Shown piece by piece: positions 4,317 to 24,262 of a DNA stretch of 38,093 nt (its first letter is position 1; each line of letters starts with the position of its first letter). A program made the translations under genes and the position numbers. Source of the stretch: a virus; the IMG/VR virus record IMGVR_UViG_3300047299_000054, positions 1 to 38,093 of that record; one strand, 5' to 3'. A model generated the notes under the pieces. It saw only the letters and a program-made list of their open reading frames with translations. It had not been told where the DNA came from and ran no database searches.

Positions 4317-5548
4317 TAAAATAAAGCGGTTGGTTTTTGTGGTTCAACAACTTTGTTTGGATTTCTCTTAATAGTTTTAAGAGCATCTGCATGCATTTGA
4401 CGATATACTACATCGTTACCGCAATGTTCTTTAGCAATTTCAAAGCATCTTTGACGACGAGCTTCTCTTGCTTCATTATCATTTGCTAATGCAGCTAATT
4501 GATCTGCAGTATCTGCTAAATTAGAACGATCACTGTACACTGCAAAGTCTTTCATTTTTGCAAATAAGGTTCCATTAAGATGTGTACAGTTATCTGCCCA
4601 ATGTTTATCGAAAACTGGAATAGTTCCGCACGCTATAATTTCGCACATTGCAAATTCCATGTTATTGCCATAAGCTTCAGCATCTAAATTATAGAAGTCT
4701 GCACCGAACATAGAAGTTGAAAGTTCTTCAATTCCTTCTAGTCTATTATAAGGTCCATAGATCCAAACCTTATCTGGAGTTTGCTGCGCAGGCTCTGGGT
4801 TCTTATTGTTTACCTCATAAATATTTGGACGATAAGAATTTTGACGATCTTCTAGATCTGAATAAAATAGATCTAATGAACCAATAGAACGTTCAATTCC
4901 TCTCATTTCACCGACAATACCAACTCTTTCAAGTTCTGGTTGCATATCGACAATCCGCTGAGGATCTTTAAATCCAGCAAATCTACCAAAATAAGAAATA
5001 CGCTTCTTTTGAGTTTCAATTGGTTTCCAATATTGCTTTAAAGAATCAAAGTCAAATCCCAATCCCATTTTAATTAATGGTACCTGTGGATTAAACTCTC
5101 TCATCTTCTTTGCAAATGGTGATGATAGGGAGTGCGTGAATGAAGCGTCCATTTGACCCATAGTTTCCCATATCATTGAGTTTCGAATTAAGGACTGGGC
5201 CTTGTGGTCATTCTGGTGTGAAAGTTTAATTGGCTTGGTAACTCCGCAAACTAAGTGGTCATAAAAGGCTTTTTGATAAGCTTCAGAATGTCCTTTCTTT
5301 GCAGGCAAAGATTGGTAATATACGATTGAGTATTCTTCATTTAACTTTTTAGTTAAAGCCTCAATCTCATTATTACCGAATTCAATGATGTCATTTTCTT
5401 GGGCATCTTTACGACCCCATTTTTTATCAGCTCCTGCATAAATGTCGCATTGCATTTCATTGTTTTGATACCACTTCTGTTCTTCAAGTGCGTATCTAGT
5501 TACGCCGCATCCTTCGATACCACGACCTAAAATAATTGCTACTTTCAT
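4316..5548 (-). CDS. agt: T4-like alpha-glucosyltransferase (GT-B fold)
   Basis: A 410-aa protein close in length to T4 AGT (about 400 aa). The N-terminus IILGRGIEGCGVTRYALEEQ matches the T4 AGT start (ARGLEGCGVTKFSLEQ), followed by a YYQSLPA block and a QNDHKAQSLIRN block equivalent to the T4 QHDHSVLSLRRN region. The C-terminal half has MCEIIACGTIPVFDKHW, matching ELGACGTIPVFWKS, the sugar-nucleotide binding half. T4 AGT transfers glucose from UDP-glucose to 5-hydroxymethylcytosine in DNA and protects it from restriction. A glucosylated or otherwise glycosylated base in this phage is inferred; no hydroxymethylase is in the window. It overlaps both neighbours by one base and is probably translationally coupled to them. 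Confidence 0.85.
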   Translation of the reverse strand: MKVAIILGRGIEGCGVTRYALEEQKWYQNNEMQCDIYAGADKKWGRKDAQENDIIEFGNNEIEALTKKLNEEYSIVYYQSLPAKKGHSEAYQKAFYDHLVCGVTKPIKLSHQNDHKAQSLIRNSMIWETMGQMDASFTHSLSSPFAKKMREFNPQVPLIKMGLGFDFDSLKQYWKPIETQKKRISYFGRFAGFKDPQRIVDMQPELERVGIVGEMRGIERSIGSLDLFYSDLEDRQNSYRPNIYEVNNKNPEPAQQTPDKVWIYGPYNRLEGIEELSTSMFGADFYNLDAEAYGNNMEFAMCEIIACGTIPVFDKHWADNCTHLNGTLFAKMKDFAVYSDRSNLADTADQLAALANDNEAREARRQRCFEIAKEHCGNDVVYRQMHADALKTIKRNPNKVVEPQKPTALF

Positions 5549-5817
5549 TATGATTGTTTTTCGTTTATGTAGTTTTCTAAACCTTGAATGTATGCAACTG
5601 CATCTAACAAATTATCTCGCTTGTGATTATAACTTTCTCGAGAAAACTTAAGAGCTACTAAAGCCATGAACATTTCACGACCAGTAACATTTAAACCCGT
5701 CATGCCATTAAAAATCATGGCTGCTCTATCCATTCCTTCTGAGAAAGGACCATACTGACGATCTGCTTCTTCAGATCGATTGTTAACTATTGAATTTGCT
5801 TCTTCTAAAATTGTCAT
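5548..5817 (-). CDS. Small phage protein resembling DUF6378
   Basis: An 89-aa protein. It has the pattern of a small phage family with an R/YG motif near the N-terminus (ADRQYGPFSEGMDRAAMIFNG, here RQYG), a MALVALKFSRE helix and a C-terminal H-x-x-x-DNLLDAVAYIQGLENYI helix. I recall this family as DUF6378, of unknown function. Its compact helical form with conserved H/D residues recalls small all-alpha NTP-PPases, but that is only an impression. The stop overlaps the agt start (TAATG). Confidence 0.6.
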   Translation of the reverse strand: MTILEEANSIVNNRSEEADRQYGPFSEGMDRAAMIFNGMTGLNVTGREMFMALVALKFSRESYNHKRDNLLDAVAYIQGLENYINEKQS

Positions 5818-7240: not shown

Positions 7241-7672
7241 TTATTGATTTCCGTATTTTTCAGTAATGAAAGATTCGTAAGTTTTAATTTTCTGAAGTAA
7301 CTTTTTACGCTTCTTTTTTTCTTTCTTATATTCTTCTTCGGCATCTCCTTGACCGGCAGGTTTATCTCCAGAACCAACAGCTCCAGTTGACATGTCTGGA
7401 AGAGCGATCTTTCCCATTCCAGCGCCTGGCATAGCAGCTCCTTGAGGAGCATTGTAATTTGCAGCGAATGACATACCTTCTTCAGTTCTTTCAGGTAAAC
7501 CTTCGTGTTCAGTAGAAGCAAAATCTTTCAATTGTTCTTTAGACATTGAATTAGAAAGTTCTTTTACCTTGTCAACATATTCTGGCGCAACATCTGTTAA
7601 TTTCATGTAGCCCATTTTAACAGCGTATGCTATTCCCATTAATCTTTGTTGTGCTTTTGATGTTGCTGGCAT
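7241..7672 (-). CDS. Hypothetical protein, DUF3008-like N-terminus and C-terminal capsid-targeting-like motif
   Basis: A 143-aa protein. The N-terminus PATSKAQQRLMGIAYAVKMG resembles a short motif found in many phage proteins (DUF3008-like, PAKSKAQQR). A Gly/Ala/Pro-rich central region (about 68-110) is followed by a lysine-rich coiled-coil-like stretch. The C-terminus IKTYESFITEK closely resembles the T4 internal-protein capsid-targeting sequence (MKTYQEFIAEA), but at the wrong end. It is last in the 17.9-7.2 kb block and is followed by the bidirectional terminator. Function unknown; an association with the prohead is inferred. Confidence 0.65.
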   Translation of the reverse strand: MPATSKAQQRLMGIAYAVKMGYMKLTDVAPEYVDKVKELSNSMSKEQLKDFASTEHEGLPERTEEGMSFAANYNAPQGAAMPGAGMGKIALPDMSTGAVGSGDKPAGQGDAEEEYKKEKKKRKKLLQKIKTYESFITEKYGNQ

Positions 7673-7681
7673 AGTTTTAAA

Positions 7682-8230
7682 TTATTTTGCGTCTATTGAT
7701 AAAAATAAACTTGCTCTGATTTCAATATTGTTACCATCAACCTGAGAGTCAAATGTACCATAAATATCTGAACTTCCAACTAAACGTATTGGGGTATTCA
7801 TCATGCCTCCAACTTTTTTAGCAAATTTAGAACCATCTGCATCATCATAAAAGCCGATATTAATTACAAAATCATTTGCGTAACTAACATATAATTCTGA
7901 AGCTCCTGGGCGGTTAATACGATTAACTGTATCTGCTATCCACTCGTCTCCTAGATTTACATTTACGAACAACACAATATCTTTAAAATCTTTAATAGAG
8001 TGATATAGTTCTCTTAAAATAATATCCTCTGCTGATTTTTTAACAAATTTGGTCCATTCGCTGTTTAACTGATCTAAAACAACATCAGCATCACCTTCAA
8101 ATTTAATCTTTTCTACTTCTTTCTTAAAAGCAAATAAGACTTTTCCAGGAATACCTTTGGCTCCATAGATGCCTGTCATTTGATAGGCTTTTTCATTTAT
8201 AAATTGCTCAAATAATTGAATATGTTTCAT
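7682..8230 (-). CDS. Hypothetical protein with capsid-targeting-like N-terminus
   Basis: A 182-aa protein starting MKHIQLFEQFINEKA, which follows the pattern of the T4 internal-protein targeting peptide (aromatic-x-E-F-I-x-E). The remainder is mixed alpha/beta with a charged N-terminal helix (KKEVEKIKFEGDADVVLDQL), a central IVLFVNVNLGDEWI strand and a C-terminal beta region ending SLFLSIDAK. No family recognised. It lies 18 bases after the 873-aa gene and 9 bases before the 143-aa gene. Packaging into the head is inference from the N-terminus. Confidence 0.65.
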   Translation of the reverse strand: MKHIQLFEQFINEKAYQMTGIYGAKGIPGKVLFAFKKEVEKIKFEGDADVVLDQLNSEWTKFVKKSAEDIILRELYHSIKDFKDIVLFVNVNLGDEWIADTVNRINRPGASELYVSYANDFVINIGFYDDADGSKFAKKVGGMMNTPIRLVGSSDIYGTFDSQVDGNNIEIRASLFLSIDAK

Positions 8231-8248
8231 GTTTTATATTTTTTTTAA

Positions 8249-10870
8249 TTACCAAGCAATGTTTAAGTTATCTAACTTAGCGATTCTTTCTTTAATATAG
8301 ATTGCTTTTTGTTTAGCTTGTTTTTCATAATAACCTCCACCTTCTTGTTCACCTTCATTTTTATATCTAGCGTATTCGGTGTAATCTGATATTAGATTAT
8401 TCATAAAGTTAGTAGCATCTCTTAAAGTAACTTCTCTACCGTCTGGTGCATTACCTAATTTCATTTCACCATACTTTGTAAATTGTTTACCTTGAACTGC
8501 CTTAGAAATTAAATCTGAACATTTTAAGATTGCTTTTTCTACTTTACCATCTAAATCATCATTCATGATTCTAGTAGCTAAAATACTTTTGTATCTTGCA
8601 ATGTTTTCTTCTTTGAATGATTTAGCATCTTTTAATGCAGTAGCTCCGGCCTGTGCAGCAGCTCTTGCAGCTCTAATACCTTCGGTGCTATATTTTTGTC
8701 TTACAACTTCTAAAGGTAAAACGTAAGCTACGTCAGATACTTCAGAAATTCTTTTTACGTTTGAAAGACCAGTTGCATCCCAGCTTCTGTATTTCTTACC
8801 GATACCTGCGGTATCAACGACATTACCATCTTTACCTACATTCTTTAAAGTATATCCTTTAGATGTTGAGTATCTACCCATCCAAGAAACTCCAAAGAAT
8901 TCATTTTGACCATTTGCGATTGCTAATAAAGAATTAGCTGGAATAGTTTTATTTGAATAGTACGCATCTGCTGGCGCATGAGGATTTGCTTTCTCGTTTC
9001 TAGAAACATAGAATACAATAGCTGAACCCAAATCTTTAGATTTATATGCAGCGCTAGGCGACATTTCAATAAAATCAGCATCTTCAATTTTATCTAAAGC
9101 AACTTTAGTATAGTTATAGAACGCTTTAAATAAATCTTTAGGTGCAAATCTTAAATCAATGAAACCCGATAAGATTGATGAAGTTAACGCCTCAGCTACG
9201 AACTCGTTGCTTTCGTTTAATTTAAATTCAACGAATTCAACAAATGATTCGTAGATAAATTTGTTCTCCATTGTTATATTATTATTTTTAATACTTTCTG
9301 ATACATGTGTGATTGACTTTAGGATTCTCTGACCATTTTTAGAAAGAGCAACTTTATCTTCACCAATATTAAAGAATTCAGCGTTTCTTCTTAACCATCT
9401 CTTAGAGTCTTCAGTTAAACCAGAAACTAATTGATCGAAATCTTCTTTAGTTAATTCACCATCTTTTAATGCTTCGATGATTTTATTTCTAATTGCGGCG
9501 TGTTTTCCAACAGTTCTAGCTGGATAATTATTAGTGTATTGTCTTTTTAAAGTGATTTTAGATTCATTAATTTCAACCGATTCTTTAATACCTAATTCTT
9601 TTAAAGACTTAACTTGCTTACCTTTTTCTTCTCCATCATTTTCATCTGTATGCCATAAAAGACCTGCTTTAATTAATCTTTTATAAATTTCAGCTTTAAC
9701 CAAATCAAAATCAATTGAATCACTTGAATTTTCCCATGTTTCTTCAACGTACTCTGGATCAATCCATCCAAATCCTTGCTTAATGTTCTTAACCATATCT
9801 GCAAAATCTTTCTCGAATTGTTTTACGGCAGCTTCGTTAAGTTCTAAAGATTCTTTAATAGGTTTTTTTAATCCCTTAATGAAATCTTCTACAGATGAAT
9901 GGCTTTTACCATAAATTTCATTTGGAGTTACTGCATGATTTACAACAGAACCATCATCATAAATATTATATGAACCGCCGTCATACTCTTCACCATCATA
10001 ATCCAAATCAAATGAATCTTCTGCCAAAGTTTTTAAATTAACTGTAACTTTTGCGCCTTCGGCTTTAGACATTGCTTTTGCTAGTGTCTCAGCTACTTTT
10101 TTAGTTTGAGCTTTTGTTAAACCGGCTGGAGCACCAAATTTAGAAGCTTCTGAAACTTCTTCAGATTCATTAAATTGTTGAATGTCAGAATATTTGAATT
10201 CAAATTCATCACCATCTGAATTTAAAGCTTTGATCGTATCTTTTCCCCACATTGCAGCATTATCATCGTTGTTGCTGTCAGGATTATAAATGATGTACTG
10301 TTTACCCTTTACAATGATTTCAGCATCATCTAACTTAGAAATTAATTTAAGTAATTGATCTTTTGAATACTTACCTTCTAAAACTTCTTCGACTGATTCT
10401 TTAACTAAATCTGAAAGATACATTCCGTTTTCTTCTCCAGTTTTAGTGTCTTCTAATTTAGCTTTACCACCAGAGATGCTAATAACTTTCCAGGTTTGTG
10501 TTGGGTCTTCACCTACAAATTTTCTAGAAACAATATCTCCAACTTTAATGCTACCTTCTGAAACTTCTTCAACTGATTCTTCAATTTTCTTAGCAGCTAA
10601 TTTAGGATCTTTCTTAGCAACGTTGTCTGTGTAAGAACCATCACCCCAAAACGCAACAATAGCATCAGTATCTGCGGTTGAATGGAATCCAGAACCAGCA
10701 TTAAAAACGTCTACGAACTGTAAACTTTTTTTGTTTTTAATCAAATCCTTAGCAAAATCAATAGCTTGCTTTTGGTTATTAAACTTTTTAGAAGCTCTTA
10801 CTCCATCAGAATAATGAACCTCGAAAGCTTCGTTTAGATTTTTTTCATTTAAGAACTCGTTAAAATTCAT
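8249..10870 (-). CDS. Modular polyprotein-like protein with repeated protease-site-like linkers
   Basis: An 873-aa protein. It opens with a capsid-targeting-like MNFNEFLNEKNLNEA and contains several small acidic alpha/beta modules separated by near-repeats: ESVEEVSEG (98-106), ESVEEVLEG (158-166), ESEEVSEA (235-242), ESLELNEA (340-346) and ESVEINES (430-437), with further LNES (551-554) and VAEA (558-561). Each linker ends in (I/L/V)-x-E before A, G or S, the cleavage signature of T4 gp21-type prohead proteases. At residue 534 a second targeting-like start occurs (MENKFIYESF...). The C-terminal 300 residues form a larger unrecognised domain. Likely a head-internal or scaffold-related polyprotein; activity of any module is unknown. 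Confidence 0.72.
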   Translation of the reverse strand: MNFNEFLNEKNLNEAFEVHYSDGVRASKKFNNQKQAIDFAKDLIKNKKSLQFVDVFNAGSGFHSTADTDAIVAFWGDGSYTDNVAKKDPKLAAKKIEESVEEVSEGSIKVGDIVSRKFVGEDPTQTWKVISISGGKAKLEDTKTGEENGMYLSDLVKESVEEVLEGKYSKDQLLKLISKLDDAEIIVKGKQYIIYNPDSNNDDNAAMWGKDTIKALNSDGDEFEFKYSDIQQFNESEEVSEASKFGAPAGLTKAQTKKVAETLAKAMSKAEGAKVTVNLKTLAEDSFDLDYDGEEYDGGSYNIYDDGSVVNHAVTPNEIYGKSHSSVEDFIKGLKKPIKESLELNEAAVKQFEKDFADMVKNIKQGFGWIDPEYVEETWENSSDSIDFDLVKAEIYKRLIKAGLLWHTDENDGEEKGKQVKSLKELGIKESVEINESKITLKRQYTNNYPARTVGKHAAIRNKIIEALKDGELTKEDFDQLVSGLTEDSKRWLRRNAEFFNIGEDKVALSKNGQRILKSITHVSESIKNNNITMENKFIYESFVEFVEFKLNESNEFVAEALTSSILSGFIDLRFAPKDLFKAFYNYTKVALDKIEDADFIEMSPSAAYKSKDLGSAIVFYVSRNEKANPHAPADAYYSNKTIPANSLLAIANGQNEFFGVSWMGRYSTSKGYTLKNVGKDGNVVDTAGIGKKYRSWDATGLSNVKRISEVSDVAYVLPLEVVRQKYSTEGIRAARAAAQAGATALKDAKSFKEENIARYKSILATRIMNDDLDGKVEKAILKCSDLISKAVQGKQFTKYGEMKLGNAPDGREVTLRDATNFMNNLISDYTEYARYKNEGEQEGGGYYEKQAKQKAIYIKERIAKLDNLNIAW

Positions 10871-10907
10871 ATCTTATCTTTATTTGTTTTTACTATATAT
10901 TATCGTA

Positions 10908-12446
10908 TTATAGGGATTCGATTGCAATATTCTTATTTAATGGCGTTGGGGCGCTTGCTCCAGCCACAAATTTAAAGTTTGCAGTATCAAAACTCTTAAT
11001 CTTAAATTTCACGTATGTTGCTTTTGGTGCGGTAATTAAGTACAATTGCTGTACAGTTGACACCTGATTTACTAGGGTAGAAAGATCTCTAGAATATCTT
11101 GCATTTAATTCTTCTACAACCTCTTTAGTTAAAGGATAGAATATAATTCCAAATCTGTTATCATCTTTTAAAATATTACCATAAGTTTTCATGGCATTAT
11201 TTTCATTTTCAAAACCCCTTGGAACAGTGTTAGTCTTTTTAAAGTATTCTGATAAAACCGGCCAAAGCGTTCCATCATTATATGCTTTATCTAAGAAAGA
11301 ACAAACTGAAGCTCTTGTGAATGTGGCTCCATTTAATCCGCTTGCGCTTAAAAAGAAATCATAACCTGATTTTGTGTTTGCTACATAATTATTAGCTAAT
11401 GCAACGAAAGTAGAATAAACATCTGAACTTCTCTTTGCATCTGATTCTTTAAAATGTTTAGTTGGATTTTCTAAAACTTCAAATACATTTTGAATTAATT
11501 CTAATTCAGTATTTGTTACACTAATGTCGCCTTGTCTATGTGCATGTAAAACTGCATGTGCTAAAGCTCCAATACTTGGAACTCCACCTCTTTTTCCAGC
11601 TTTAGAAGAAACCTTCCAACCATCGAACATAAAGTCTACTAAGGCCGCGTTTGATTGTGTAGGATATGAAACTCCAACTCCTGCATTTTTAACCATGCTG
11701 AATAAGAAAACTCCACCTAAAATTTCACCAAAGTCATTAGCAATATTATTCATTGATACCGAATCAATAGAATATTTAGCAACCAAATCTTCTCCTAAAT
11801 TAACTGTAAAATCAGTTGAATTACTTTCAACTAATTTAGTCATACTGTCATATTTAGCATAACTTGTTTGAGATGCAATTTTTGTCATTAATTCATTTAA
11901 AAATTGCTTATAATTATCGGGCAATGAAGTTCTAGAAACGGCTCCATTTGCTAAACTAATTAATTGACTTACAGTTGTATATTCATTTTTAGTTAATCCT
12001 AATTTATCAGGTGAAAGATCTTTTTTACCAACGGCTGCTTTAACACCTCCTTTAATTGAAGCTCTGTTTACAATATAGTAAGCTTCTCCTCTTTTAAAAT
12101 TAGCGTTACCAATAACTTGATCTTTCTGTATTAATAATTCTAATGTAGAAAATTGACCTGATTTAGAACCAGCTTCTCCAGGAGAAATAAGATTAACTAC
12201 AAATGCATCCGGGCTCATACCCGCATCGATCATCATATTAGCGAACATTTGTGCAGGATCTTCTCCAAAGTCAGCTCTTAGTGATTCACCTGTTTTAGCT
12301 TTAATTATAGTACCGCTATATCTAATTTGACGAATGTACGCATTGTATGTATTTTCAAACCATGGTCTGTAAAATTCTCTGGCTGCTTCGTAAAGTGCCA
12401 TTGCTGTTTCAAATCTTGCTCTAATGTCTCCGGGTGTAATTGCCAT
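10908..12446 (-). CDS. Hypothetical protein, possible PD-(D/E)XK-like nuclease fold
   Basis: A 512-aa protein with an N-terminal helical segment (ARFETAMALYEAAREFYRPW) and a central block, E241 in NDFGEILGGVF then YPTQSNAALVDFMFDGWKVSSKAG (D271, K282). The order E...D...x-x-K, with strands before D271 and K282, recalls PD-(D/E)XK nucleases, although the expected acidic residue two before the lysine is serine. This is a weak fold guess. It overlaps the ligase-adenylyltransferase gene by one base (TAATG), so the two are likely translated together. No capsid-targeting-like start is visible, unlike several neighbours. Confidence 0.55.
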   Translation of the reverse strand: MAITPGDIRARFETAMALYEAAREFYRPWFENTYNAYIRQIRYSGTIIKAKTGESLRADFGEDPAQMFANMMIDAGMSPDAFVVNLISPGEAGSKSGQFSTLELLIQKDQVIGNANFKRGEAYYIVNRASIKGGVKAAVGKKDLSPDKLGLTKNEYTTVSQLISLANGAVSRTSLPDNYKQFLNELMTKIASQTSYAKYDSMTKLVESNSTDFTVNLGEDLVAKYSIDSVSMNNIANDFGEILGGVFLFSMVKNAGVGVSYPTQSNAALVDFMFDGWKVSSKAGKRGGVPSIGALAHAVLHAHRQGDISVTNTELELIQNVFEVLENPTKHFKESDAKRSSDVYSTFVALANNYVANTKSGYDFFLSASGLNGATFTRASVCSFLDKAYNDGTLWPVLSEYFKKTNTVPRGFENENNAMKTYGNILKDDNRFGIIFYPLTKEVVEELNARYSRDLSTLVNQVSTVQQLYLITAPKATYVKFKIKSFDTANFKFVAGASAPTPLNKNIAIESL

Positions 12447-14302
12447 TATTTACTAATATTTAGTTTAAACTGCTCGAATGTCATAAATTCGTGTTCAGTT
12501 TCTACTGATTCAACGGTTGCAAGTGATTGCTCTAATTTTTTCTTTAAGTCGCCAAACATTGAATGCAATGCCTTCGGAGTTAATTTTTCAAATTCTTTCT
12601 TATTATCATCAGCTAAAGCTTCTCTAACTTTAGTTGCTGAAATATCTTCATCATCTCTCTTGATTTCATAAAGACTAAATTCAGGAAGAACTCCAAGTGC
12701 TTCTCTATATTTATCGTTATTAACCTGATAGCCATACGTTTTAAATCTGTCTGTGCCTGTTCCCCATAATACTGGTTCGTATTTAGGTCTCATTTCATTA
12801 AACATCAAATCGATACCAGCTGATGGAATTACAAAGATTTCTTTTAAGAAAGGATACTGTTTTTTAACAGCTTCAAACATTTGAATTTGAGTGTTAGTAT
12901 CGTATGGTCTTTTAACAGCATCATCCTTCTGTGCTTTAGCTGCTTTAACTAAGAACACAACAACTGGATAACCATTTTGTTTATGTATTGTTTCTAAAAC
13001 TTTAGCATGACCTAGCGTAAATGGTTGGAATCTACCAACAAACATATTTACTTTTTCTTTACCTTGTTCAGGATAGTCAATTTTTAAAGCTTCATTTAAA
13101 TTTGTTTTTGTTGACACAATTTTATTGTGCATTAAGAAATTATTAAAGTTATAGATTGAATGTTCATCTGCATTTTCTACAAATACTTTTTGTTCAATCG
13201 CTTCAATAATTTGATTCATTTGTTCGATCATTTCTTTATTTAAAAGAGAAGATTCTTTCTCTCTCTTTTTATTGAAAGAACCTAACATGATTTTAAATAG
13301 TTCAGATAGAACTGGATTCTCAACATATTTTAATGTTTTCTCTGAATCAATCCATTTAGTATTTAATTTGAATAGATCTGATTTTGCAAACTCAGCTTTA
13401 CCAAAATCAACGCCAACATACTTTGTAGCGTTTTCTTTAACATACTGATTGTACATTGCGCAAATCATTTCTAAATATCTTTTATCTGATGCTGTTTCAG
13501 TTAATTCGATCTGTGATAAATCATAGCTTGTAAAGAATTCAAGAATGTCTACGATCGATAACTGATACATGTGACTAGATTCTCTTTGTGATGGAACTTC
13601 TCCCTGTTCAGAAACTTCTTTATGTTCTTCTAATTTATAAGATTTAATTTGAGTACCATCTACAAAACTAACTACGAATCCATCGATAGGTTTTTCTAAA
13701 CTTTCGTTCAATACGCTTTTATAAACCGATGGATTAAATATTTTATACATTTGTTGAGCAAATGATTCATTGCCTCTTCCAGACGTAGTCAGCCAATTAG
13801 TTAATTCCCTTCTTTGTTCTTCATTTAAAACTCCGTTAAATACGATTGAAGGTCCTTGTACTTCTAATTTAGAAGCCCACTCTTGTAAAATTTTAGGATC
13901 TGTTAAAACCTTTTTAGTTTTACCATTCTCACCTATAACTTGTATGTGAGTTAAGATCATAAAATTAAATGGAGTTGAATCGTATTGAACATCAGAAATA
14001 CTTGTTTCTGGTAAATATTCAAACCCAAATTTCCAATCACTTGGCATTGCTTCTTTAACGTCAGTCACTAAACTTTGAAAGTGTTTAATACCTATTTCAT
14101 AAAGGCTTGACATTGTTCTATCAACCATGTTCATTGCTTCTGATTTACCTGACTTAAAATATTCTAAACCAGATAAACCTCTTCTAACGTGAAAAGAAGG
14201 TGCTGAAATTTTTTCAGTCACAACAACTTTCAATTTCAATAAATCACTAAACGTATTAGTGTTTGTTGATTGATATAAGTCTGTTAGTTTTTGTAATGCC
14301 AT
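12446..14302 (-). CDS. Fusion of ATP-dependent-ligase-like domain and NMN-adenylyltransferase-like domain
   Basis: A 618-aa protein. The N-terminal half has nucleotidyltransferase (DNA/RNA ligase superfamily) motifs: motif I EKISAPSF (candidate lysine K31), motif III FGFEYLP (92-98), motif IV KPIDGFVVSF (204-213) and motif V IKSYKLEE (219-226). A helical linker follows. Residues 418-560 form a cytidylyltransferase/NadM-like domain with GRFQPFTLGH (423-432) and the ISATKVR signature (554-560). The linker contains LNEA (402-405), a prohead-protease-like site that could separate the domains. The C-terminus MTFEQFKLN resembles a capsid-targeting motif. Possible roles are nucleic-acid end joining or repair and NAD metabolism; substrates are unknown. 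Confidence 0.75.
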   Translation of the reverse strand: MALQKLTDLYQSTNTNTFSDLLKLKVVVTEKISAPSFHVRRGLSGLEYFKSGKSEAMNMVDRTMSSLYEIGIKHFQSLVTDVKEAMPSDWKFGFEYLPETSISDVQYDSTPFNFMILTHIQVIGENGKTKKVLTDPKILQEWASKLEVQGPSIVFNGVLNEEQRRELTNWLTTSGRGNESFAQQMYKIFNPSVYKSVLNESLEKPIDGFVVSFVDGTQIKSYKLEEHKEVSEQGEVPSQRESSHMYQLSIVDILEFFTSYDLSQIELTETASDKRYLEMICAMYNQYVKENATKYVGVDFGKAEFAKSDLFKLNTKWIDSEKTLKYVENPVLSELFKIMLGSFNKKREKESSLLNKEMIEQMNQIIEAIEQKVFVENADEHSIYNFNNFLMHNKIVSTKTNLNEALKIDYPEQGKEKVNMFVGRFQPFTLGHAKVLETIHKQNGYPVVVFLVKAAKAQKDDAVKRPYDTNTQIQMFEAVKKQYPFLKEIFVIPSAGIDLMFNEMRPKYEPVLWGTGTDRFKTYGYQVNNDKYREALGVLPEFSLYEIKRDDEDISATKVREALADDNKKEFEKLTPKALHSMFGDLKKKLEQSLATVESVETEHEFMTFEQFKLNISK

Positions 14303-14340
14303 TTTAATTTTCTTTGTTATATGAATATTAATGAGTTTGT

Positions 14341-15621
14341 TTATCTTCCGTATTTAATAATTCCCATTAATTGATTAATTGCTGCAAAGGTTCCAGTTAA
14401 TTTAAATAACTTTCCTTTGTATTGAAACACTAAGCCTTCAGAAGGAACAATTGATTCAATACCGCCGATTGAATTTAATCTTGCTAATTCTTTTTCAACT
14501 TTAGCAAGCTGTTTTAGATCTCCGTTCTGTTTAATTTTATCTGATTCAGATTTAATCTGTGCGTGTAATCTTTGTGCTTCTTGGCTCGGATTTGCAACTA
14601 ATAAATTTGAAACATTTTTTAATACTACTGAACCTAATTCTAAGAATAGATTTTCAAATGGTAAGATGTTCTCTTTATATTTTTTAGCAGCGTCTTCTTT
14701 GTCAAATTTTTGAAATGCAACATATTCGTCTTTAGACATTTTCTTTTTTAAATCATTTAAATTTAAAGCTTTTTTATCTGCAAATGCCCATCTCTGAACA
14801 AGACCCGCTCTATCAATTGCATCAATATGTGGAAAAGTTTTCTCTATTAATTCAGTCCACCACATTTCATGATATTTAGATACGGGATCAGCGTCCTGTA
14901 ATTTATACTTGTTTTCTAAAGTTTGTATCTTATTTAAGAAATAACCTTTCTTCTCTTCGAAATCGATTGACTTTCCGATTTGTAATTGTTGTGGTGGAAT
15001 AATTTCAAATGTTTTTTGAACATGTTTATTAACGTCCTTTAACGCGTTTGCGATTTTACCAGCTATCTTATTATCAGAACCCGTTTGATTTCCCTGACCA
15101 TCGGTGTGAACAATACCGTGAAATTGAATTACATCTTTGCCATATACAATTACGTTAGAATTGCCGGAATAGATTAACTCCATATTCATAAATGAAGTTC
15201 CATTATTGAATTCGGCCTGATCTTTAGCTGGTAGTGATTGTAGGGCTGTTGCTAGATCATTTGCAGCAAACGTAAATGTATCTCTTACTCCATCGGATGG
15301 ATGATCTTGGAACATCTGTGTGATTTCTGATAAACCAATAGGTTGTTTCATCTGCCCTTTATTTCTAGCAAATAAAACTTGACCATTCTGCATGGTTACG
15401 AAAAGATTTTGGCCATCAGTCTTTTCGGTTGGGGCCTCTTCAAAATCTAATCTACCTTCCAAGGCGCCATCAATAATATGCTTGATTTCTCCAAACGTTA
15501 AGGTTTCATCGTCAAAGGGGTGCATCATGTGACCGGCTGCGCCACCTTCTAGAATGATAGTAGCATTCTTTTCGTTCCATTTTTCTATAAGGAACTCCGT
15601 AAAGTTAAGTAGTTTCTTCAT
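14341..15621 (-). CDS. Ligase-superfamily protein with capsid-targeting-like N-terminus
   Basis: A 426-aa protein; the ATG at 15621 is preferred over an in-frame TTG at 15627. It starts MKKLLNFTEFLIEK, resembling a capsid-targeting peptide, then has IILEGGAAGHMMHPFD (22-37), where ILE-G is a protease-like site. Ligase motifs follow: motif I EKTDGQN (66-72, K67), motif III FMNMELIY (144-151), motif IV EGLVF (395-399) and motif V KGKLFKLTG (402-410). About 240 residues of mostly helical sequence sit between motifs III and IV, unusually far apart. Similar proteins with an EGGAAGHM segment occur, to my recollection, in T4-like marine phages. Substrate unknown. A strong terminator hairpin ends just before its start codon. 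Confidence 0.72.
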   Translation of the reverse strand: MKKLLNFTEFLIEKWNEKNATIILEGGAAGHMMHPFDDETLTFGEIKHIIDGALEGRLDFEEAPTEKTDGQNLFVTMQNGQVLFARNKGQMKQPIGLSEITQMFQDHPSDGVRDTFTFAANDLATALQSLPAKDQAEFNNGTSFMNMELIYSGNSNVIVYGKDVIQFHGIVHTDGQGNQTGSDNKIAGKIANALKDVNKHVQKTFEIIPPQQLQIGKSIDFEEKKGYFLNKIQTLENKYKLQDADPVSKYHEMWWTELIEKTFPHIDAIDRAGLVQRWAFADKKALNLNDLKKKMSKDEYVAFQKFDKEDAAKKYKENILPFENLFLELGSVVLKNVSNLLVANPSQEAQRLHAQIKSESDKIKQNGDLKQLAKVEKELARLNSIGGIESIVPSEGLVFQYKGKLFKLTGTFAAINQLMGIIKYGR

Positions 15622-15625
15622 AATC

Positions 15626-15655
15626 AAAAAAGACCTGAGTGGTATTCTCAGGTCT
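15626..15655 (-). terminator. Rho-independent terminator after the 730-aa gene
   Basis: Perfect 9-bp stem AGACCTGAG/CTCAGGTCT (15631-15639 with 15647-15655) with a 7-nt loop, followed on the minus strand by six T residues. It lies 18 bases after the stop at 15674, and its T tract ends only four bases before the ATG of the next gene (15621). It may thus act both as terminator and as leader structure for the ligase-like gene. Confidence 0.85.
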
Positions 15656-15673
15656 ATTATTTATCTTTATTAA

Positions 15674-17866
15674 TTAGCCTAAGCTAGATGTTAACATTCC
15701 AACAGCAGCACCGTAATCGCCATCACATTTCTTAAGAATGCCATCAACTACTTCTTTTGCTTTAGCTTCATCGAATTCATCTTTGAAAGCATCTTTTAAT
15801 ACAGTCATTGCGTATTCTGTAAATTGCTCGTCAGATTTGATGTCTTCTTCATTAAGCTCAATTGCTTCGAAAGCTTTATCTTTTTTAGGAGCTGGAAGAA
15901 TATCTCCAACCTTTGGTAATTTGTCGTATTGCTTTAACCAATTTTCTTCAAGCATCATACCAAACATTCCATGGAATCTTTTGTCAGGTACGTTAGACAT
16001 TGTTGGAAAGCTTGAATGTAAAACTTTTTCAACACTAATCACATAAATCTCATCAGCTCTAGTATCTACTGCGTACGTTACTAAAGTCTTATCGAAGTCT
16101 TTAGATTTAAACATTGCTTCAGAAACTTCTTCATCTTCAGTAAGAGCATGTTTCTTTAAAGTAACTTTGTATTTTTTACCGTTTACTTCAAATTCATCTT
16201 TACCTTCTTGTTTAGCTTTAGCAGCTGCGTATACAAATGCATTGCCTTCTGAAACTACTAATTCTAAATCTTTATCTTTATCTGAAATAGCATCGTTTAA
16301 TTCTACTTCCAACGCGTTTTTCTTAGCAGTTAATTCTTTTAATTTAGCTAATAAAGGCGCTTTAGCATCTCCTTCAGCTTTCTTCCAAGCATCAACTGTA
16401 GATTTCATTTCAGCCGTAACTTTAGTCCATTCGTTTTGGATCTTATTAATAGATCTTGCTTCATATAAATCAGCTTGAACTTTTTCAGCGTCAGTTTGAT
16501 CTTCTTTTTCTACTTCACCTAAATCATTGATGTCAGCTTCAATTTCTTCAGCTTTATCCTCTTCAACTTTATAAGTTTTACCGTCAAATTCAAATTCTTT
16601 CTCACCAGCTTCTTTAGCTTTTTTAACAGCTAAACTAAACTCATTGCCTTCTTCAACTTCAACAGATTCTTTAACTGAATCCTTTAAAGATTTTAATTCA
16701 TCCTTTAATTTAGGATCTAAACCTCTTTCAATTCCCCAGTTAAATGATGCTTTAACTAACATCGCTAATGGTAAATTACCATTTTTCTTTCCGTATGGAG
16801 ATGTTCTGATCCAATCAATAAAATGCTGAGCTAATTCTTTTGACATTTTAAAATCTTCAGCCTTTGAAGAATCGCCATTAACAATTCCTTGAAGTAATTT
16901 AGTTGCCATACCATGTGCACCTTCATTTACGTCTAATGATTCACCAAATAAATCATATAATTCGAATGCTAACCATTCAATAACCTCGTCAGCTTCAAAT
17001 CCATCATCTGTTAAATCATTAATCATATCTTCAGCAGACTTCTTGAAAGTTTTCATAGATGCAGTTTTAACTAAGCCATTAGCTCTTGACATAAATGAGC
17101 TGCTTGGTTTTGAAAAACCTTCAACTAATAAAGATTCAGAAACTGGCTTCAATTCTTTATCTTCATAAGTATCTGCCATGTACCATTTACCATCTCTTTC
17201 ATCAAATAAGTATGCGTATTCTGCACCACTGTTATTTGCAACTTGCTTTAAGTATTTAGCTACGCTTTTAACGTCTGCTTTGGTAGTCATATCTCTTTTT
17301 TCGTTTCTATCTCTACCGTAGAATAAAGTAACGCCTTTATCAGGATTATTAAAGTCCATTGGTTGTTCACCGATTTTCTTATCTAAGTATGAAATACCAA
17401 ATTTACCTAAAGTAACTAATTGGTCTACTGTTTTCGCGTTCTTATAGTTCTTTAACAATGGTACCATGTTTTCAGGATAACCATCATAATGTACATATAC
17501 TGATGTGATTTTACCATCTTTACCAATTTTACCAATTTGAGAACGAGTTCCTTCGGTGATTAAAGATTCATTAGCAGCTTGAACTTTTTCAGCGTCTTTT
17601 TCGTCTTCTTTCTTAGGTTCGCCTAAGTCGTTAATATCTTTTTCAATCTCTTCGGCTTCATCTTCAAAAATAGTTGCAATTAACGTATTTCTTTTTTCTT
17701 CATCTAATTCTTTTAATGAAGTAACACCCATTTCTTCTAGGGCTGCTCCAATTTTAGATACGATTTCAGCTCTTTTAGATTTACCTTCTTCATGTAACTT
17801 AGCAGCATGTTGCTGTCCCTTAAGCTCAGTAAAGGTTTTAAATGATGAAATTCTTTGTACTGACAT
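15674..17866 (-). CDS. Modular, internally repeated protein with prohead-protease-site-like linkers
   Basis: A 730-aa acidic protein beginning MSVQRISSFKTFTELKGQQH. Small modules are separated by NESLITEG (99-106), SESLLVEG (243-250), ESLDVNEG (309-316), ESVEVEEG (400-407), LVVSEG (536-541) and EEVSEA (579-584). Two internal duplications are visible: EEIEKDINDLGE...DAEKVQA (72-97) repeated as EEIEADINDLGE...DAEKVQA (440-465), and EGNEFSLAVKKAKEAG...DGKTYKV (406-434) repeated as EGNAFVYAAAKAKQEG...NGKKYKV (540-568). The linkers fit (I/L/V)-x-E-(A/G/S) cleavage. It may be a scaffold-like or head-internal polyprotein; no enzyme motif is seen. A GATATATAA element lies about 34 bases upstream. Confidence 0.72.
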   Translation of the reverse strand: MSVQRISSFKTFTELKGQQHAAKLHEEGKSKRAEIVSKIGAALEEMGVTSLKELDEEKRNTLIATIFEDEAEEIEKDINDLGEPKKEDEKDAEKVQAANESLITEGTRSQIGKIGKDGKITSVYVHYDGYPENMVPLLKNYKNAKTVDQLVTLGKFGISYLDKKIGEQPMDFNNPDKGVTLFYGRDRNEKRDMTTKADVKSVAKYLKQVANNSGAEYAYLFDERDGKWYMADTYEDKELKPVSESLLVEGFSKPSSSFMSRANGLVKTASMKTFKKSAEDMINDLTDDGFEADEVIEWLAFELYDLFGESLDVNEGAHGMATKLLQGIVNGDSSKAEDFKMSKELAQHFIDWIRTSPYGKKNGNLPLAMLVKASFNWGIERGLDPKLKDELKSLKDSVKESVEVEEGNEFSLAVKKAKEAGEKEFEFDGKTYKVEEDKAEEIEADINDLGEVEKEDQTDAEKVQADLYEARSINKIQNEWTKVTAEMKSTVDAWKKAEGDAKAPLLAKLKELTAKKNALEVELNDAISDKDKDLELVVSEGNAFVYAAAKAKQEGKDEFEVNGKKYKVTLKKHALTEDEEVSEAMFKSKDFDKTLVTYAVDTRADEIYVISVEKVLHSSFPTMSNVPDKRFHGMFGMMLEENWLKQYDKLPKVGDILPAPKKDKAFEAIELNEEDIKSDEQFTEYAMTVLKDAFKDEFDEAKAKEVVDGILKKCDGDYGAAVGMLTSSLG

Positions 17867-17900: not shown

Positions 17901-17909
17901 TTATATATC
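17901..17909 (-). promoter_or_regulatory. Candidate phage promoter element before the 730-aa gene
   Basis: GATATATAA on the minus strand, about 34 bases before the ATG at 17866 and overlapping the uvsW stop codon. It matches elements upstream of several other genes here and resembles T4-type late promoters (TATAAATA). The role is inferred from recurrence in an AT-rich genome. Confidence 0.4.
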
Positions 17910-20092: not shown

Positions 20093-21156
20093 AGATAATA
20101 CGCATCTAATTGTGAAGTACTGAAATAATTTTCAATTGACTTTAAACAATTACTTTTGGTTTCCCATGCTGCAATTACCAGATCATTTAAGTCTTTTATC
20201 TGTTTAGGATATGTATCCATTTTAGTTTCTTTCAGATATTTGTCCCATGTGAAAACGCTTTTATTACGTTTCATCTTTTCCATCATCTTTTTCTTACCTG
20301 GTTCATCATTATCAAACATATATCTGATGGTTGGAATTTGATCTAATTCAGTAGTGTCTCTGTGAACTGAAGCTAACGCAATTGAATTATGCATAAACAT
20401 CATATCCATAGGACCTTCAAATACTGTAACTGATCTTGTCATATCTACTAACATGATGCCAAACATAGTTGACATTTTATTAATAGAATTTGCAAGAGCT
20501 TCATCTAATTCAACTGGTTCTTCTAACCATTCTTTAATTTTTAATAAGTCATACGTTAAATATCTTGAACTTTTGGTTTTAACTAAAGCTCTTGATTGCA
20601 TACCTATTACTTTATCATCCGGTCCTAAATTTAGAACATACAGTCTTTTATCTTTTGGCGAATACATGAAATGATTTGCCTTATTAGTCAATAATCTTCC
20701 ACGTAAATAGAAGAATCCTGGATCTCCGGGTTCAATATCTTTAAAGCCTAATTTTTCTTTGAGAGTTTGTTTTGTTGGAGCCAATTCTAATACTGTTGCA
20801 AATATTCCAGTATGAACAACGTCAGCATAATTAGATTCAACCCTGTTTTCTTTTACATAATCAATTACTTCAATTGTATCATCGGCATTTAATCTAATGC
20901 CATGGTCTTTTAATAATTTATATGCATCGCTATGTTCGCCACAGTTAAAACAGTGATACTGTAAAGTATCCCAATAAAGATTGCCTCGTTTCTTAGACTC
21001 ATCTCTACTGGAATCTCCACAATAAGGACATGCAATAGTTATACGTCCAGGCATATCTTTAATTTTTTGCTTAGATATAGCTTGATGTTCTTTTTCTAAA
21101 ACTCTTTTAATAAGAACTCTTATTTTTGATTTAAGAGATTCATTTATTTTTTCCAT
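20089..21156 (-). CDS. 61: DNA primase (T4 gp61-like)
   Basis: A 355-aa protein near T4 gp61 length (342 aa). A zinc-binding domain shows CPYCGDSS and YHCFNCGEHSD (about residues 43-80), a Cys4 ribbon for template recognition. The TOPRIM-like catalytic region includes the VFEGPMDMMFMHN glutamate motif and YMFDNDEPGKKKM aspartate pair. Primase would make RNA primers on the lagging strand with a replicative helicase, not present in the window. It lies with gp32-, UvsY- and UvsW-like genes. The start overlaps the 3' end of the GIY-YIG endonuclease gene by 17 bases. Confidence 0.88.
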   Translation of the reverse strand: MEKINESLKSKIRVLIKRVLEKEHQAISKQKIKDMPGRITIACPYCGDSSRDESKKRGNLYWDTLQYHCFNCGEHSDAYKLLKDHGIRLNADDTIEVIDYVKENRVESNYADVVHTGIFATVLELAPTKQTLKEKLGFKDIEPGDPGFFYLRGRLLTNKANHFMYSPKDKRLYVLNLGPDDKVIGMQSRALVKTKSSRYLTYDLLKIKEWLEEPVELDEALANSINKMSTMFGIMLVDMTRSVTVFEGPMDMMFMHNSIALASVHRDTTELDQIPTIRYMFDNDEPGKKKMMEKMKRNKSVFTWDKYLKETKMDTYPKQIKDLNDLVIAAWETKSNCLKSIENYFSTSQLDAYYL

Positions 21157-21760
21157 TGTGCTTACAATTATCGAAATGATAACGCTTCATATTCTGTTTA
21201 CCTATTTTATCGCAATGTGGACACTTTGTTTCTTCATAAAATCTATTCTTAGCTGAATCTGACATTAATGATTTTGTTAAATCATTTCTTTTAATACCTG
21301 TTAGCTTCTTTGAAATTTTATCTCGATTTTCGTCACTTATCATTTTACCGAAATTAGGATTGTTCGAACCTATTTTGGCAGTTGACATTTTTTGTTTGGA
21401 TTCTGTATTATGTGTTCTACCATAAAAAGGATTTTTTTCACCTGACATTGATTTTTTCATAGTGTCTTTAAATTCTTTATTATATAAAGAACTATTTCCT
21501 CCGTATCTTAAGTTATATCCTATTTCTGGATTGGCTGAATCGTAATATTGAATCCAATAAGCTTCTCTTAAATCTAATTCCTCAATCGTATTGCATTCTT
21601 CTATTAAATCTTTTACAAAATTTTCTTTGCCATATATGTATATTTCTCCTACAATTTTCTTACCTGAACCCATATATGATTTGGATTCGTTAAATGATTT
21701 TTTAGATTGACCTATGTAAATCATTCCGTTTACTTTATTAGTTATTTTGTAGATGTACAT
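21140..21760 (-). CDS. GIY-YIG homing endonuclease with NUMOD3 motifs
   Basis: A 206-aa protein. The GIY-YIG core begins MYIYKITNKVNGMIYIGQS, with YIY (2-4) and YIG (15-17) in family positions, then the catalytic glutamate in LREAYWIQYYDS and GYNLRYGG. Two NUMOD3-type repeats follow (GEKNPFYGRTHN and GSNNPNFGKMIS), then a C-terminal C-x2-C...H-x4-C zinc finger (CPHCDK...YHFDNCKHNG). It is inserted between the gp32 and primase genes, its 3' end overlapping the primase start by 17 bases. A hairpin with an embedded promoter-like motif precedes it. The recognition site may lie in gp32 or primase alleles lacking it. Confidence 0.9.
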   Translation of the reverse strand: MYIYKITNKVNGMIYIGQSKKSFNESKSYMGSGKKIVGEIYIYGKENFVKDLIEECNTIEELDLREAYWIQYYDSANPEIGYNLRYGGNSSLYNKEFKDTMKKSMSGEKNPFYGRTHNTESKQKMSTAKIGSNNPNFGKMISDENRDKISKKLTGIKRNDLTKSLMSDSAKNRFYEETKCPHCDKIGKQNMKRYHFDNCKHNGKNK

Positions 21761-23879: not shown

Positions 23880-24248
23880 TTAGATTCTTTTACCAAGTGA
23901 AGCACCAACTGCAGCGCCAACCAATCTTGAAGTTAATAAATCGTAAAGAAGTCCTGACTGAACTCCTAAAGCTCTAGCTACAATTTTACCAACTGTATTT
24001 CCAAGAGCAAAACCAGTAAGACCGCCAATAATAGAACCGATTAAACCTTCATTAGTTAATTCATCGTTAAATCTATCAATGTCAATTAAACCATTGTGAT
24101 CTTCGTAATTAGACATAAATTCATCAATAGCAATATCTATCTTTTCTTCTAGCTCTGGCGTTAATTCAGAAGTTAAAGATTCCTGTAACATATCCCATTC
24201 TTGGTTTGTTACGTTTTGTTCTGACAAATATTCTAAAAATGTTTTCAT
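23880..24248 (-). CDS. Small head-targeted-like protein with C-terminal glycine-zipper membrane-like segment
   Basis: A 122-aa protein in two parts. The N-terminus MKTFLEYLSEQ resembles the T4 capsid-targeting peptide, followed by an acidic helical region. Then LTNEG (about 64-68) is a candidate prohead-protease-like site, and the last 55 residues are glycine/alanine-rich and hydrophobic: GLIGSIIGGLTGFALG and LVGAAVGASLGKRI, a glycine-zipper pattern of two possible membrane segments. Cleavage after E67 would release a basic amphipathic or membrane-inserting peptide. Function unknown; an ejected or membrane-active head peptide is an inference. Confidence 0.65.
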   Translation of the reverse strand: MKTFLEYLSEQNVTNQEWDMLQESLTSELTPELEEKIDIAIDEFMSNYEDHNGLIDIDRFNDELTNEGLIGSIIGGLTGFALGNTVGKIVARALGVQSGLLYDLLTSRLVGAAVGASLGKRI

Positions 24249-24262
24249 ATTAGTATATATCT

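What the first reader, a model, noticed from the sequence alone, without database searches (positions are those of the whole stretch)
7241..17866. Possible capsid-cargo island: several neighbouring proteins carry T4-like capsid-targeting and prohead-protease-like signals
Starts such as MNFNEFLNEKNLNEA (10870), MKHIQLFEQFINEK (8230), MKKLLNFTEFLIEK (15621), plus C-termini IKTYESFITEK (143-aa protein) and MTFEQFKLN (618-aa protein), resemble the T4 internal-protein targeting peptide MKTYQEFIAEA. Candidate (I/L/V)-x-E-(A/G/S) sites follow many of them. T4 uses this peptide to load internal proteins, which gp21 then trims. Here the candidate cargo includes ligase-like and adenylyltransferase-like enzymes, implying enzymes delivered with the DNA to act at once on host or phage nucleic acids or NAD. 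The motif is short, and the enzyme-delivery idea is inference.
Basis: partly seen in the sequence, partly recalled or inferred. Interest (0 to 1): 0.85.

Follow-up and report, generated by a model that had tools for sequence, protein, structure and literature searches.

The report
Capsid-targeted, protease-cut phage cargo proteins
A widespread group of large T4-like phages appears to load its head with dozens of small proteins, several of them known blockers of bacterial immunity, and some strung together as chains that the head-maturation protease should cut apart, so that they can be injected with the DNA.

Summary
The motif is a true relative of the T4 capsid-targeting sequence (CTS): a scoring matrix built only from relatives of this window ranks ipIII and ipII first in the whole T4 genome. 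Relatives encode the T4-type prohead protease and gp23. A GATATATA element, shared with structural genes and nearly absent from metabolic genes, heads the island.

Small domains are joined by 'ES..[ILV]xE|[AGS]' linkers, and the same domains recur in relatives in other orders, in the other polyprotein, or alone directly behind a CTS; the junctions coincide with the cleavage motif. CTS cargo elsewhere in these phages includes Tad3 (anti-Thoeris) and Acb1 (anti-CBASS) homologs. The island's own enzymes are ligase-like and NMN-adenylyltransferase-like; their substrates are unknown.

Best reading: late-made head cargo, tagged by CTS, cut by the prohead protease, injected for counter-defence and host takeover. 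Packaging, cutting and injection are inferred, not shown.

The parts
17902..17909 (-). GATATATA late-promoter-like element heading the island (overlaps the end of the uvsW-like gene, 36-43 nt before the 730-aa start)
   Evidence: Same 8-mer within 100 nt upstream of 25/96 CTS, 10/18 polyprotein, 11/46 structural and 1/129 metabolic genes in 9 relatives. Function inferred.
15674..17866 (-). 730-aa polyprotein: divergent CTS-like start (ISSFKTFTEL) and at least 6 cleavage-type linkers
   Evidence: Linker enrichment; cassettes shuffled in relatives
17120..17551 (-). 730 cassette 1 (aa 106-249), phrog_1987 domain between LITE|G and LLVE|G; free-standing gene in cyanophages P-SSM2 and S-SSM4
16922..17119 (-). 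730 cassette 2 (aa 250-315), ends DVNE|G
16649..16921 (-). 730 cassette 3 (aa 316-406), ends VEVEE|G
   Evidence: found after six different upstream neighbours in relatives
16118..16648 (-). 730 cassettes 4-5 (aa 407-583), containing two 'GNxF..A..KA..G..EFE..GK.YKV' mini-repeats, ends VSE|A
15677..16117 (-). 730 C-terminal cassette(s) (aa 584-730)
   Evidence: partly at 74% identity in the middle of the L002 873-type polyprotein
14341..15621 (-). Ligase-like covalent nucleotidyltransferase (428 aa from the TTG at 15627, 426 aa from the ATG at 15621): CTS MKKLLNFTEFLIEK (15580-15621), candidate cut ILE|GG at about 15547/15546, motifs KTDG, MNMELIY, EGLVF, KLTG
   Evidence: Alignment with E|GG and motifs invariant; AlphaFold pLDDT 81 with disordered residues 21-30 at the candidate cut; best Foldseek hits RNA/DNA ligases but E>0.05
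12446..14302 (-). 618-aa protein: N-terminal region with a ligase-like motif, C-terminal NMN adenylyltransferase/cytidylyltransferase domain, C-terminal CTS MTFEQFKLNISK (12449-12484)
   Evidence: Pfam PF01467, NMNAT models; C-terminal TFEQF-type motif conserved in 34 of 39 homologs; at the domain junction in fused homologs
10908..12446 (-). 512-aa protein of unknown function, no terminal CTS; homolog fused behind the 618-type protein in L037/L038/L056
8249..10870 (-). 873-aa polyprotein: N-terminal CTS MNFNEFLNEKNLNE|A and at least 7 internal cleavage-type sites
   Evidence: AlphaFold shows several confident domains separated by low-confidence linkers
10556..10828 (-). 873 cassette 1 (aa 15-105)
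   Evidence: 90% identical cassette in the other polyprotein gene of L005/L007, there preceded by SVDE|G
10376..10555 (-). 873 cassette 2 (aa 106-165), SH3/KOW-like by weak fold matches
10148..10375 (-). 873 cassette 3 (aa 166-241)
   Evidence: 60% identical in the 730-type polyprotein of L066/G009
9833..10147 (-). 873 cassette 4 (aa 242-346)
   Evidence: 94% identical at another position in L007; directly behind the N-terminal CTS in L058
9563..9832 (-). 873 cassette 5 (aa 347-436)
   Evidence: In the 730-type polyprotein of several relatives at 70-76% identity
9296..9562 (-). 873 cassette 6 (aa 437-525)
   Evidence: 56 homologs; directly behind the CTS (MNFDDFLNE|SKITLKRQ) in L012, similarly in L018, L019
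9191..9295 (-). 873 internal CTS-like stretch IYESFVEFVEFKLNE..VAE (aa 526-560)
8252..9190 (-). 873 C-terminal domain (aa 561-873)
   Evidence: Conserved C-terminal domain in 48 homologs; a relative of it appears free-standing behind its own CTS in G006 82859-83908
7682..8230 (-). 182-aa CTS protein (MKHIQLFEQFINEK at 8189-8230); fused as the last segment of the L011 polyprotein
   Evidence: CTS score 27.8
7241..7672 (-). 143-aa DUF3008 protein with C-terminal CTS (KTYESFITEK within 7244-7288)
   Evidence: PF11450; score 19.7; C-terminal CTS also in the likely DUF3008 counterpart of the 462-kb phage LR756500.1
23880..24248 (-). 122-aa CTS protein outside the island (glycine-zipper-like), with GATATATA at 24254-24261
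   Evidence: CTS start conserved in relatives; score 12.0

Best explanation
The block is a late operon of head-cargo proteins. Most products carry a T4-type capsid-targeting sequence (N-terminal, internal or C-terminal) that should dock them on the prohead core. The phage's gp21-type protease would then cut at [ILV]xE|[AGS] sites, removing tags and cutting the two large polyproteins into separately folded cassettes. The cassettes would stay in the head with the DNA and be injected at infection for counter-defence and host takeover. SHOWN by sequence: CTS on many unrelated proteins, protease and gp23 in relatives, linkers and their coincidence with shuffled-domain borders, shared upstream element with structural genes, CTS on Tad3 and Acb1 homologs. 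INFERRED: packaging, cleavage, retention in the head, injection, and the function of the cassettes.
For: CTS: T4 cross-check 94; absent from 129 metabolic homologs. Protease and gp23 present; gp20 - CTS-tagged gp67-like protein - protease - gp23 order; protease motifs GELDHP/SSRAAG and gp23 start LINE|AEIR. Linkers. Domain shuffling: of 187 boundary contexts with a different upstream neighbour, 89% have [ILVMF]xE within 3 residues (22.5% expected) and 74% have the strict motif (9.5% expected); 17 of 21 cassette families with >=4 members have >=3 different upstream neighbours, and the same domain sits behind a free-standing CTS. Beads-on-a-string model. Late-type expression. Cargo: Tad3 77.5 bits vs cut-off 27, Acb1 31.4 and 28.3 vs 27, GNAT, R2K ATP-grasp, AAA; all 6 distinct Tad3 and 11 distinct Acb1 copies retrieved carry the CTS, and the Acb1 copies keep two HxT motifs. 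Precedent: T4 Ip1-3 are signal-bearing, injected and block GmrSD enzymes (PMC12373910).
Against: No virion proteomics, cleavage assay or injection data exist for this lineage. The window itself is a fragment in which no protease or capsid gene was seen; those come from relatives. Some cassette borders lack the strict motif (26%), and 730 cassette 4 scores only 43-50%, partly from imperfect segmentation. T4 gp22, gp67 and gp68 are also cut repeatedly but into short fragments, so fragments need not be retained. The patterns used to fetch Tad3/Acb1 loci included the CTS peptide, which favours CTS-bearing copies. No cassette has a known function. The GATATATA element was found post hoc.
Confidence: 0.77

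Rival explanations
1. Core/scaffold reading: the polyproteins and CTS proteins form the transient prohead core (like T4 gp22, gp67, gp68); the protease cuts them to bits that leave the head, and nothing is injected.
For: Repeated cleavage sites also occur in the protease-scaffold fusion of the relatives and a gp67-like protein carries the CTS; T4 gp22/67/68 are cut into short fragments (PMC5694885).
Against: Fragments are mostly 60-140-aa conserved cassettes, several with confident fold predictions, moved between genes or positions at up to 90-94% identity, and some exist as free-standing CTS proteins; CTS cargo includes enzymes and known anti-defence families, unlike a scaffold.
Confidence: 0.12
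2. Linkers are only flexible, rapidly recombining joints of multidomain 'polyvalent' proteins that are packaged and injected uncut.
For: Polyvalent proteins with 2-15 domains are a known injected class, some packaged unprocessed (PMC5512222).
Against: A flexible joint needs no fixed [ILV]xE|[AGS] sequence; the same motif ends the CTS and starts the same cassette in free-standing copies, and the right protease family is encoded by relatives.
Confidence: 0.08
3. The CTS-like start is a shared regulatory or ancestral N-terminus (paralogy or a translation-start preference), not a targeting signal.
For: A few CTS proteins within one genome are paralogs.
Against: About 50 sequence clusters share only the first ~12 residues; a matrix trained on two genomes finds it on proteins without homologs in training; C-terminal and internal placements exist; T4's functionally tested CTS proteins are the top hits.
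Confidence: 0.03

Closest known systems
T4 internal proteins IPI, IPII, IPIII and Alt with capsid-targeting sequence, processed by gp21 (PMC9026906, PMC12373910)
   Same: Short F..F...E N-terminal peptide, cut after E, many unrelated small proteins, protease of family S77, anti-defence cargo
   Different: Up to about two dozen CTS proteins per genome; multi-cassette polyproteins; C-terminal and internal CTS; cargo includes Tad3 and Acb1 homologs. T4's own Acb1 (57B) has no CTS
Polyvalent proteins of phages and conjugative elements (Iyer et al. 2017, PMC5512222)
   Same: Multidomain, modular, predicted to be packaged and injected for conflict with the host
   Different: There, embedded peptidase domains are proposed to release the parts; here no embedded peptidase was found, and the head-maturation protease is predicted to cut short repeated linkers in trans; no cassette of the polyproteins scanned reached a Pfam cut-off
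phiKZ/SPN3US inner-body and ejection proteins with multiply cut propeptides (PMC10052503, PMC5694885)
   Same: Large ejected protein load; several cleavage sites per protein, always after E
   Different: There mainly N-terminal propeptides are removed; here the sites separate domains that are shuffled as units
P1 DarA/Hdf/DdrB/DarB head-packaged anti-restriction proteins (PMC5512222)
   Same: Head-packaged anti-defence cargo, partly proteolytically processed
   Different: No T4-type CTS array or cassette linkers described in the passages read; other targets
'Moraphages' and other large aquatic Bacteroidota T4-like phages (PMC12619734)
   Same: Large metagenomic T4-like phages with prohead core protease; possibly the same broad lineage
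   Different: The word polyprotein does not occur in that paper; membership of this window was not tested

Membership tests
T4-type CTS-bearing internal head protein | N-terminal (about 10 aa) peptide like MKTYQEFIAE ending in a gp21-type site | tested here: met
   Matrix from relatives ranks T4 ipIII/ipII first of all T4 ORFs; window 182-, 873- and 428-aa proteins score 27.8, 14.9, 13.6
T4-type CTS-bearing internal head protein | gp21-family (S77) prohead protease encoded by the phage | tested here: met
   PF03420 over cut-off in 12 of 16 relatives' contigs, with GELDHP and SSRAAG motifs; not in the window itself, which is a fragment
T4-type CTS-bearing internal head protein | Late expression together with head genes | tested here: inconclusive
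   GATATATA shared with structural genes suggests it; no transcript data; T4's TATAAATA is not enriched
T4-type CTS-bearing internal head protein | Present in the virion and trimmed at the site | not testable with these tools
   Needs mass spectrometry
Polyvalent protein (Iyer 2017) | Several conflict-related domains in one polypeptide, packaged and injected | tested here: inconclusive
   Several cassettes in one polypeptide: yes; recognised conflict domains: none over cut-off in Pfam; packaging untested
Polyvalent protein (Iyer 2017) | Embedded peptidase domain (common, not universal) | tested here: not met
   No peptidase match in the window's 873/730-aa proteins or ten related proteins
ATP-dependent nucleic-acid ligase / covalent nucleotidyltransferase (428-aa protein) | KxDG nucleotidylation motif and downstream motifs III, IV, V | tested here: met
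   KTDG, E[LI]IY, EG.VF and KLTG conserved in 23 homologs; KLDG in LR756500.1
ATP-dependent nucleic-acid ligase / covalent nucleotidyltransferase (428-aa protein) | Fold match | tested here: inconclusive
   Top 20 PDB matches are RNA/DNA ligases but E>=0.05; no PDB relative by sequence
NMN adenylyltransferase (618-aa C-terminal domain) | GRFQPFTLGH and ISATxxR motifs, NMNAT profile over equivalog cut-off | tested here: inconclusive
   Motifs conserved; domain-level TIGR00125 over cut-off, NMNAT equivalog models below cut-off

The most novel reading that the evidence does not exclude
These phages make modular cargo polyproteins: capsid-targeted strings of interchangeable small effector domains joined by prohead-protease linkers, so that head maturation itself releases a mixed set of effectors for injection. 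A new effector is acquired by dropping a domain between two linkers or behind a CTS, giving a fast-evolving, virion-borne counter-defence arsenal that already includes anti-CBASS and anti-Thoeris proteins able to act before any phage gene is expressed.
Probability: 0.62. Interest if true: 0.9.

Novelty: new variant of a known kind. Interest (0 to 1): 0.78.

Why it matters
T4 internal proteins show that injected, capsid-targeted proteins defeat host defences, but only a handful have a known target. Here the same zip code marks about 50 protein clusters in nine related uncultivated phages, so a simple sequence rule could reveal injected counter-defence proteins across environmental phages. The polyprotein design would be a new way for a DNA phage to package many effectors with few targeting signals, and would mean that anti-CBASS and anti-Thoeris factors can arrive ready-made. 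It also makes every cassette a testable candidate immune inhibitor.

Tried and rejected
T4 late promoter TATAAATA was not enriched upstream of CTS or structural genes; GATATATA emerged instead. No relative in the 'phages' collection by DNA, and none by protein for the 873-aa protein. A Pfam scan of ten related proteins (mostly polyproteins) identified no cassette function, and 32 further CTS proteins matched no Pfam family. PDB sequence search with the ligase-like alignment gave only chance matches; Foldseek of the 873-aa model gave nothing significant. T4 nrdC.10/nrdC.11 were tested as counterparts of the 428/618 pair: no meaningful profile match. An internal CTS-like match in the 512-aa protein (score 13.7) is not conserved in its homologs, so it is treated as chance. 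Sub-threshold hits such as RVT_3 and QatB were not followed.
Full report
WHAT THE WINDOW IS. The 38,093-base window is a virus record and a fragment. All principal genes lie on the minus strand and are T4-like: UvsW-, UvsY-, primase- and gp32-like genes upstream of the island, and DNA polymerase and nrdB downstream (names from reading the sequence; homologs of T4 uvsW, gene 61, gene 32 and gene 43 in the relatives). The gp32-like protein is closest to LR756500.1 (462-kb uncultured phage), with other huge phages and the Prevotella Lak phages next among annotated phages. The island 7241-17866 is syntenic in about 80 IMG/VR contigs, with the ligase-like protein 56-84% identical.

THE OBSERVATION. 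The quoted termini are present. Using a matrix made from N-termini of relatives, 89 of 1520 proteins in nine related contigs score >=10 at their start, against 2 internal windows and 0 shuffled starts. Trained on two genomes and applied to proteins of the others that have no homolog in training, it finds 20 of 246 at >=12 against none in either control. Applied to T4, the two best ORFs of the whole genome are ipIII and ipII. The CTS on the 428-aa protein is retained even in a homolog only 34% identical in LR756500.1, again followed by LILE|GG.

THE CLEAVAGE-TYPE SITES. [ILV]xE[AGS] is not generally enriched in the island, only in the 873-aa (15 vs 3.5 expected) and 730-aa (9 vs 3.3) proteins. 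In extended form, ES followed within five residues by the site, there are 6 and 4 against 0.16 and 0.15 expected, and none in the remaining 30 window proteins. The sites divide both proteins into segments of roughly 35-150 residues plus a longer C-terminal domain.

THE SEGMENTS ARE CASSETTES. Cassette 1 of the 873-aa protein is 90% identical to a segment in the other polyprotein gene of L005/L007; cassette 4 is 94% identical at another position in L007; cassette 6 follows the CTS directly in L012, L018 and L019 (e.g. MNFDDFLNE|SKITLKRQ) but follows internal linkers elsewhere. In 187 distinct contexts where the upstream neighbour differs, 89% have [ILVMF]xE within three residues of the cassette start (22.5% expected) and 74% the strict motif (9.5% expected). 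Ninety-two non-identical polyproteins gave 460 segments in 123 clusters; 17 of 21 clusters with at least four members have three or more different upstream neighbours, and several cassettes recur as free-standing CTS proteins in other genomes. The phrog_1987 cassette is a stand-alone gene in cyanophages P-SSM2 and S-SSM4. AlphaFold of the 873-aa protein gives confident domains around residues 16-57, 253-310 and 770-870, moderate ones around 120-150 and 455-520, and confidence below 50 over most linkers (shallow, composite alignment, mean pLDDT 58).

TAG POSITION. The tag can be at the start, at the end or inside. The end of the 618-aa protein, TFEQF, is kept as a TF..F motif in 34 of 39 homologs. 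In fused 1114-1122-aa homologs the same motif sits between the adenylyltransferase domain and the next domain and is followed by [ILV]xE-type sites, so in these lineages a C-terminal tag and an internal tag are related by gene fusion or fission. The DUF3008 protein carries it at the C-terminus here, in several relatives and in the apparent counterpart in LR756500.1.

THE PROTEASE. Twelve of sixteen large relatives' contigs encode a PF03420 (S77) protease and ten encode gp23. The gene order is portal-like, CTS-tagged gp67-like protein, protease, gp23. The protease is fused to a long repetitive scaffold-like tail. GELDHP and SSRAAG motifs are present, and gp23 begins with a conserved LINE|AEI. 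The targeting and cutting machinery is therefore present in the lineage, though outside this fragment.

EXPRESSION. The 8-mer most enriched upstream of CTS genes, GATATATA, is also the top one upstream of structural genes. It precedes 25/96 CTS, 10/18 polyprotein and 11/46 structural genes but 1/129 metabolic genes (CTS vs metabolic p=1.3e-9; CTS vs other p=2.9e-9; found post hoc, survives correction for all 65,536 8-mers). In the window it lies at 17902-17909, in front of the 730-aa gene, and at 24254-24261, in front of the 122-aa CTS gene. I read it as a late promoter element; this is inference.

CARGO. CTS-tagged proteins of relatives include a Tad3-family Thoeris inhibitor (PF25185, 77.5 bits, cut-off 27; G003 180681-181439, with a homolog in G001 whose start I corrected), Acb1/2H-phosphoesterase proteins (PF23474, 31.4 and 28.3 bits, cut-off 27; a third below it), a GNAT acetyltransferase, an R2K ATP-grasp enzyme and an AAA ATPase. 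All 6 distinct Tad3 and 11 distinct Acb1 sequences retrieved carry the CTS, and the Acb1 ones keep two HxT motifs (retrieval patterns included CTS letters). In Vibrio phage phi50-12 the match to the Tad3 homolog begins at query residue 40, after the tag region. T4's own Acb1 (57B) has no CTS. In G001 the Acb1 and Tad3 genes lie two genes apart in a run of about a dozen small genes, most of them CTS-tagged.

THE ISLAND ENZYMES. The 428-aa protein has the KxDG and companion motifs of covalent nucleotidyltransferases, conserved in 23 homologs. Its model (pLDDT 81, with residues 21-30 around the candidate cut disordered) finds RNA and DNA ligases as its top 20 PDB matches, but with E-values of 0.05 or worse. 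The 618-aa protein ends in an NMN-adenylyltransferase-like domain. In Microcystis phage Mel-JY01 the ligase-like region lies in one protein annotated as cytidylyltransferase-like, in the same region as terminase, prohead protease and capsid genes. Nucleic-acid repair or NAD restoration are both possible; I do not choose between them.

MECHANISM. Most likely: late transcription; docking of tagged proteins to the prohead core; cutting by the gp21-type protease at tags and linkers during maturation; retention with DNA; injection; immediate action on host defences and metabolism. Late transcription and docking are supported by sequence signals; cutting by motif, shuffling and presence of the enzyme; retention and injection rest on analogy with T4 internal proteins, three of which are injected inhibitors of GmrSD enzymes (PMC12373910).

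KNOWN OR NEW. CTS-bearing internal proteins are known (PMC9026906). Multidomain injected 'polyvalent' proteins are known, with embedded peptidases proposed to release the domains (PMC5512222). Multiply cut propeptides are known in SPN3US (PMC10052503). I found no description, in the held literature, of shuffled cassette polyproteins joined by prohead-protease linkers, nor of CTS-tagged Tad3 or Acb1 (most subscription papers are missing from that library). I therefore file it as a new variant of a known kind.

Noticed in passing
relatives G001 51569-53383, G009 104769-106973 and five others: Prohead protease is fused to a long repetitive coiled-coil-like tail (YSEHVAEKADQGIQ repeats) with many cleavage-type sites: a protease-scaffold fusion where T4 has separate gp21 and gp22.
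   Followed up: partly
G001 193196-200271 (L113/L114) and G003 176127-182703 (L161/L162): Runs of small genes, most starting MKHIKLFEQFVNEA-like; they include the Acb1-, GNAT- and Tad3-like genes. Most members match no Pfam family.
   Followed up: partly
window 5548-5817: 89-aa protein ends QGLENYINEK (CTS score 12.6 at its C-terminus), conserved in close relatives; could be chance or another C-terminal tag.
   Followed up: no
window 27710-29983 and 30027-32105: Two large proteins with collagen-like GPQGxQG repeats near their N-termini, probably fibre or tail proteins.
   Followed up: no
window 2706-3608 and 21140-21760: HNH-like and GIY-YIG-like homing endonuclease-type genes next to the DNA polymerase and primase genes; the polymerase ORF is only 469 aa, as in relative G007 (467 aa), so gene 43 appears to be split.
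   Followed up: no
L012 4544-7257: The uvsW-like gene of this relative is interrupted by a 316-aa ORF, suggesting an intron or homing-element insertion.
   Followed up: no
window 23880-24248: 122-aa CTS protein with glycine-zipper-like C-terminal half, conserved in relatives; an ejected membrane-active protein is possible.
   Followed up: partly
L008, L076, L060 polyproteins: A ~28-aa mini-module GNAFxxAxxKAxxxGKxEFExxGKxYKV recurs many times within and between polyproteins.
   Followed up: no
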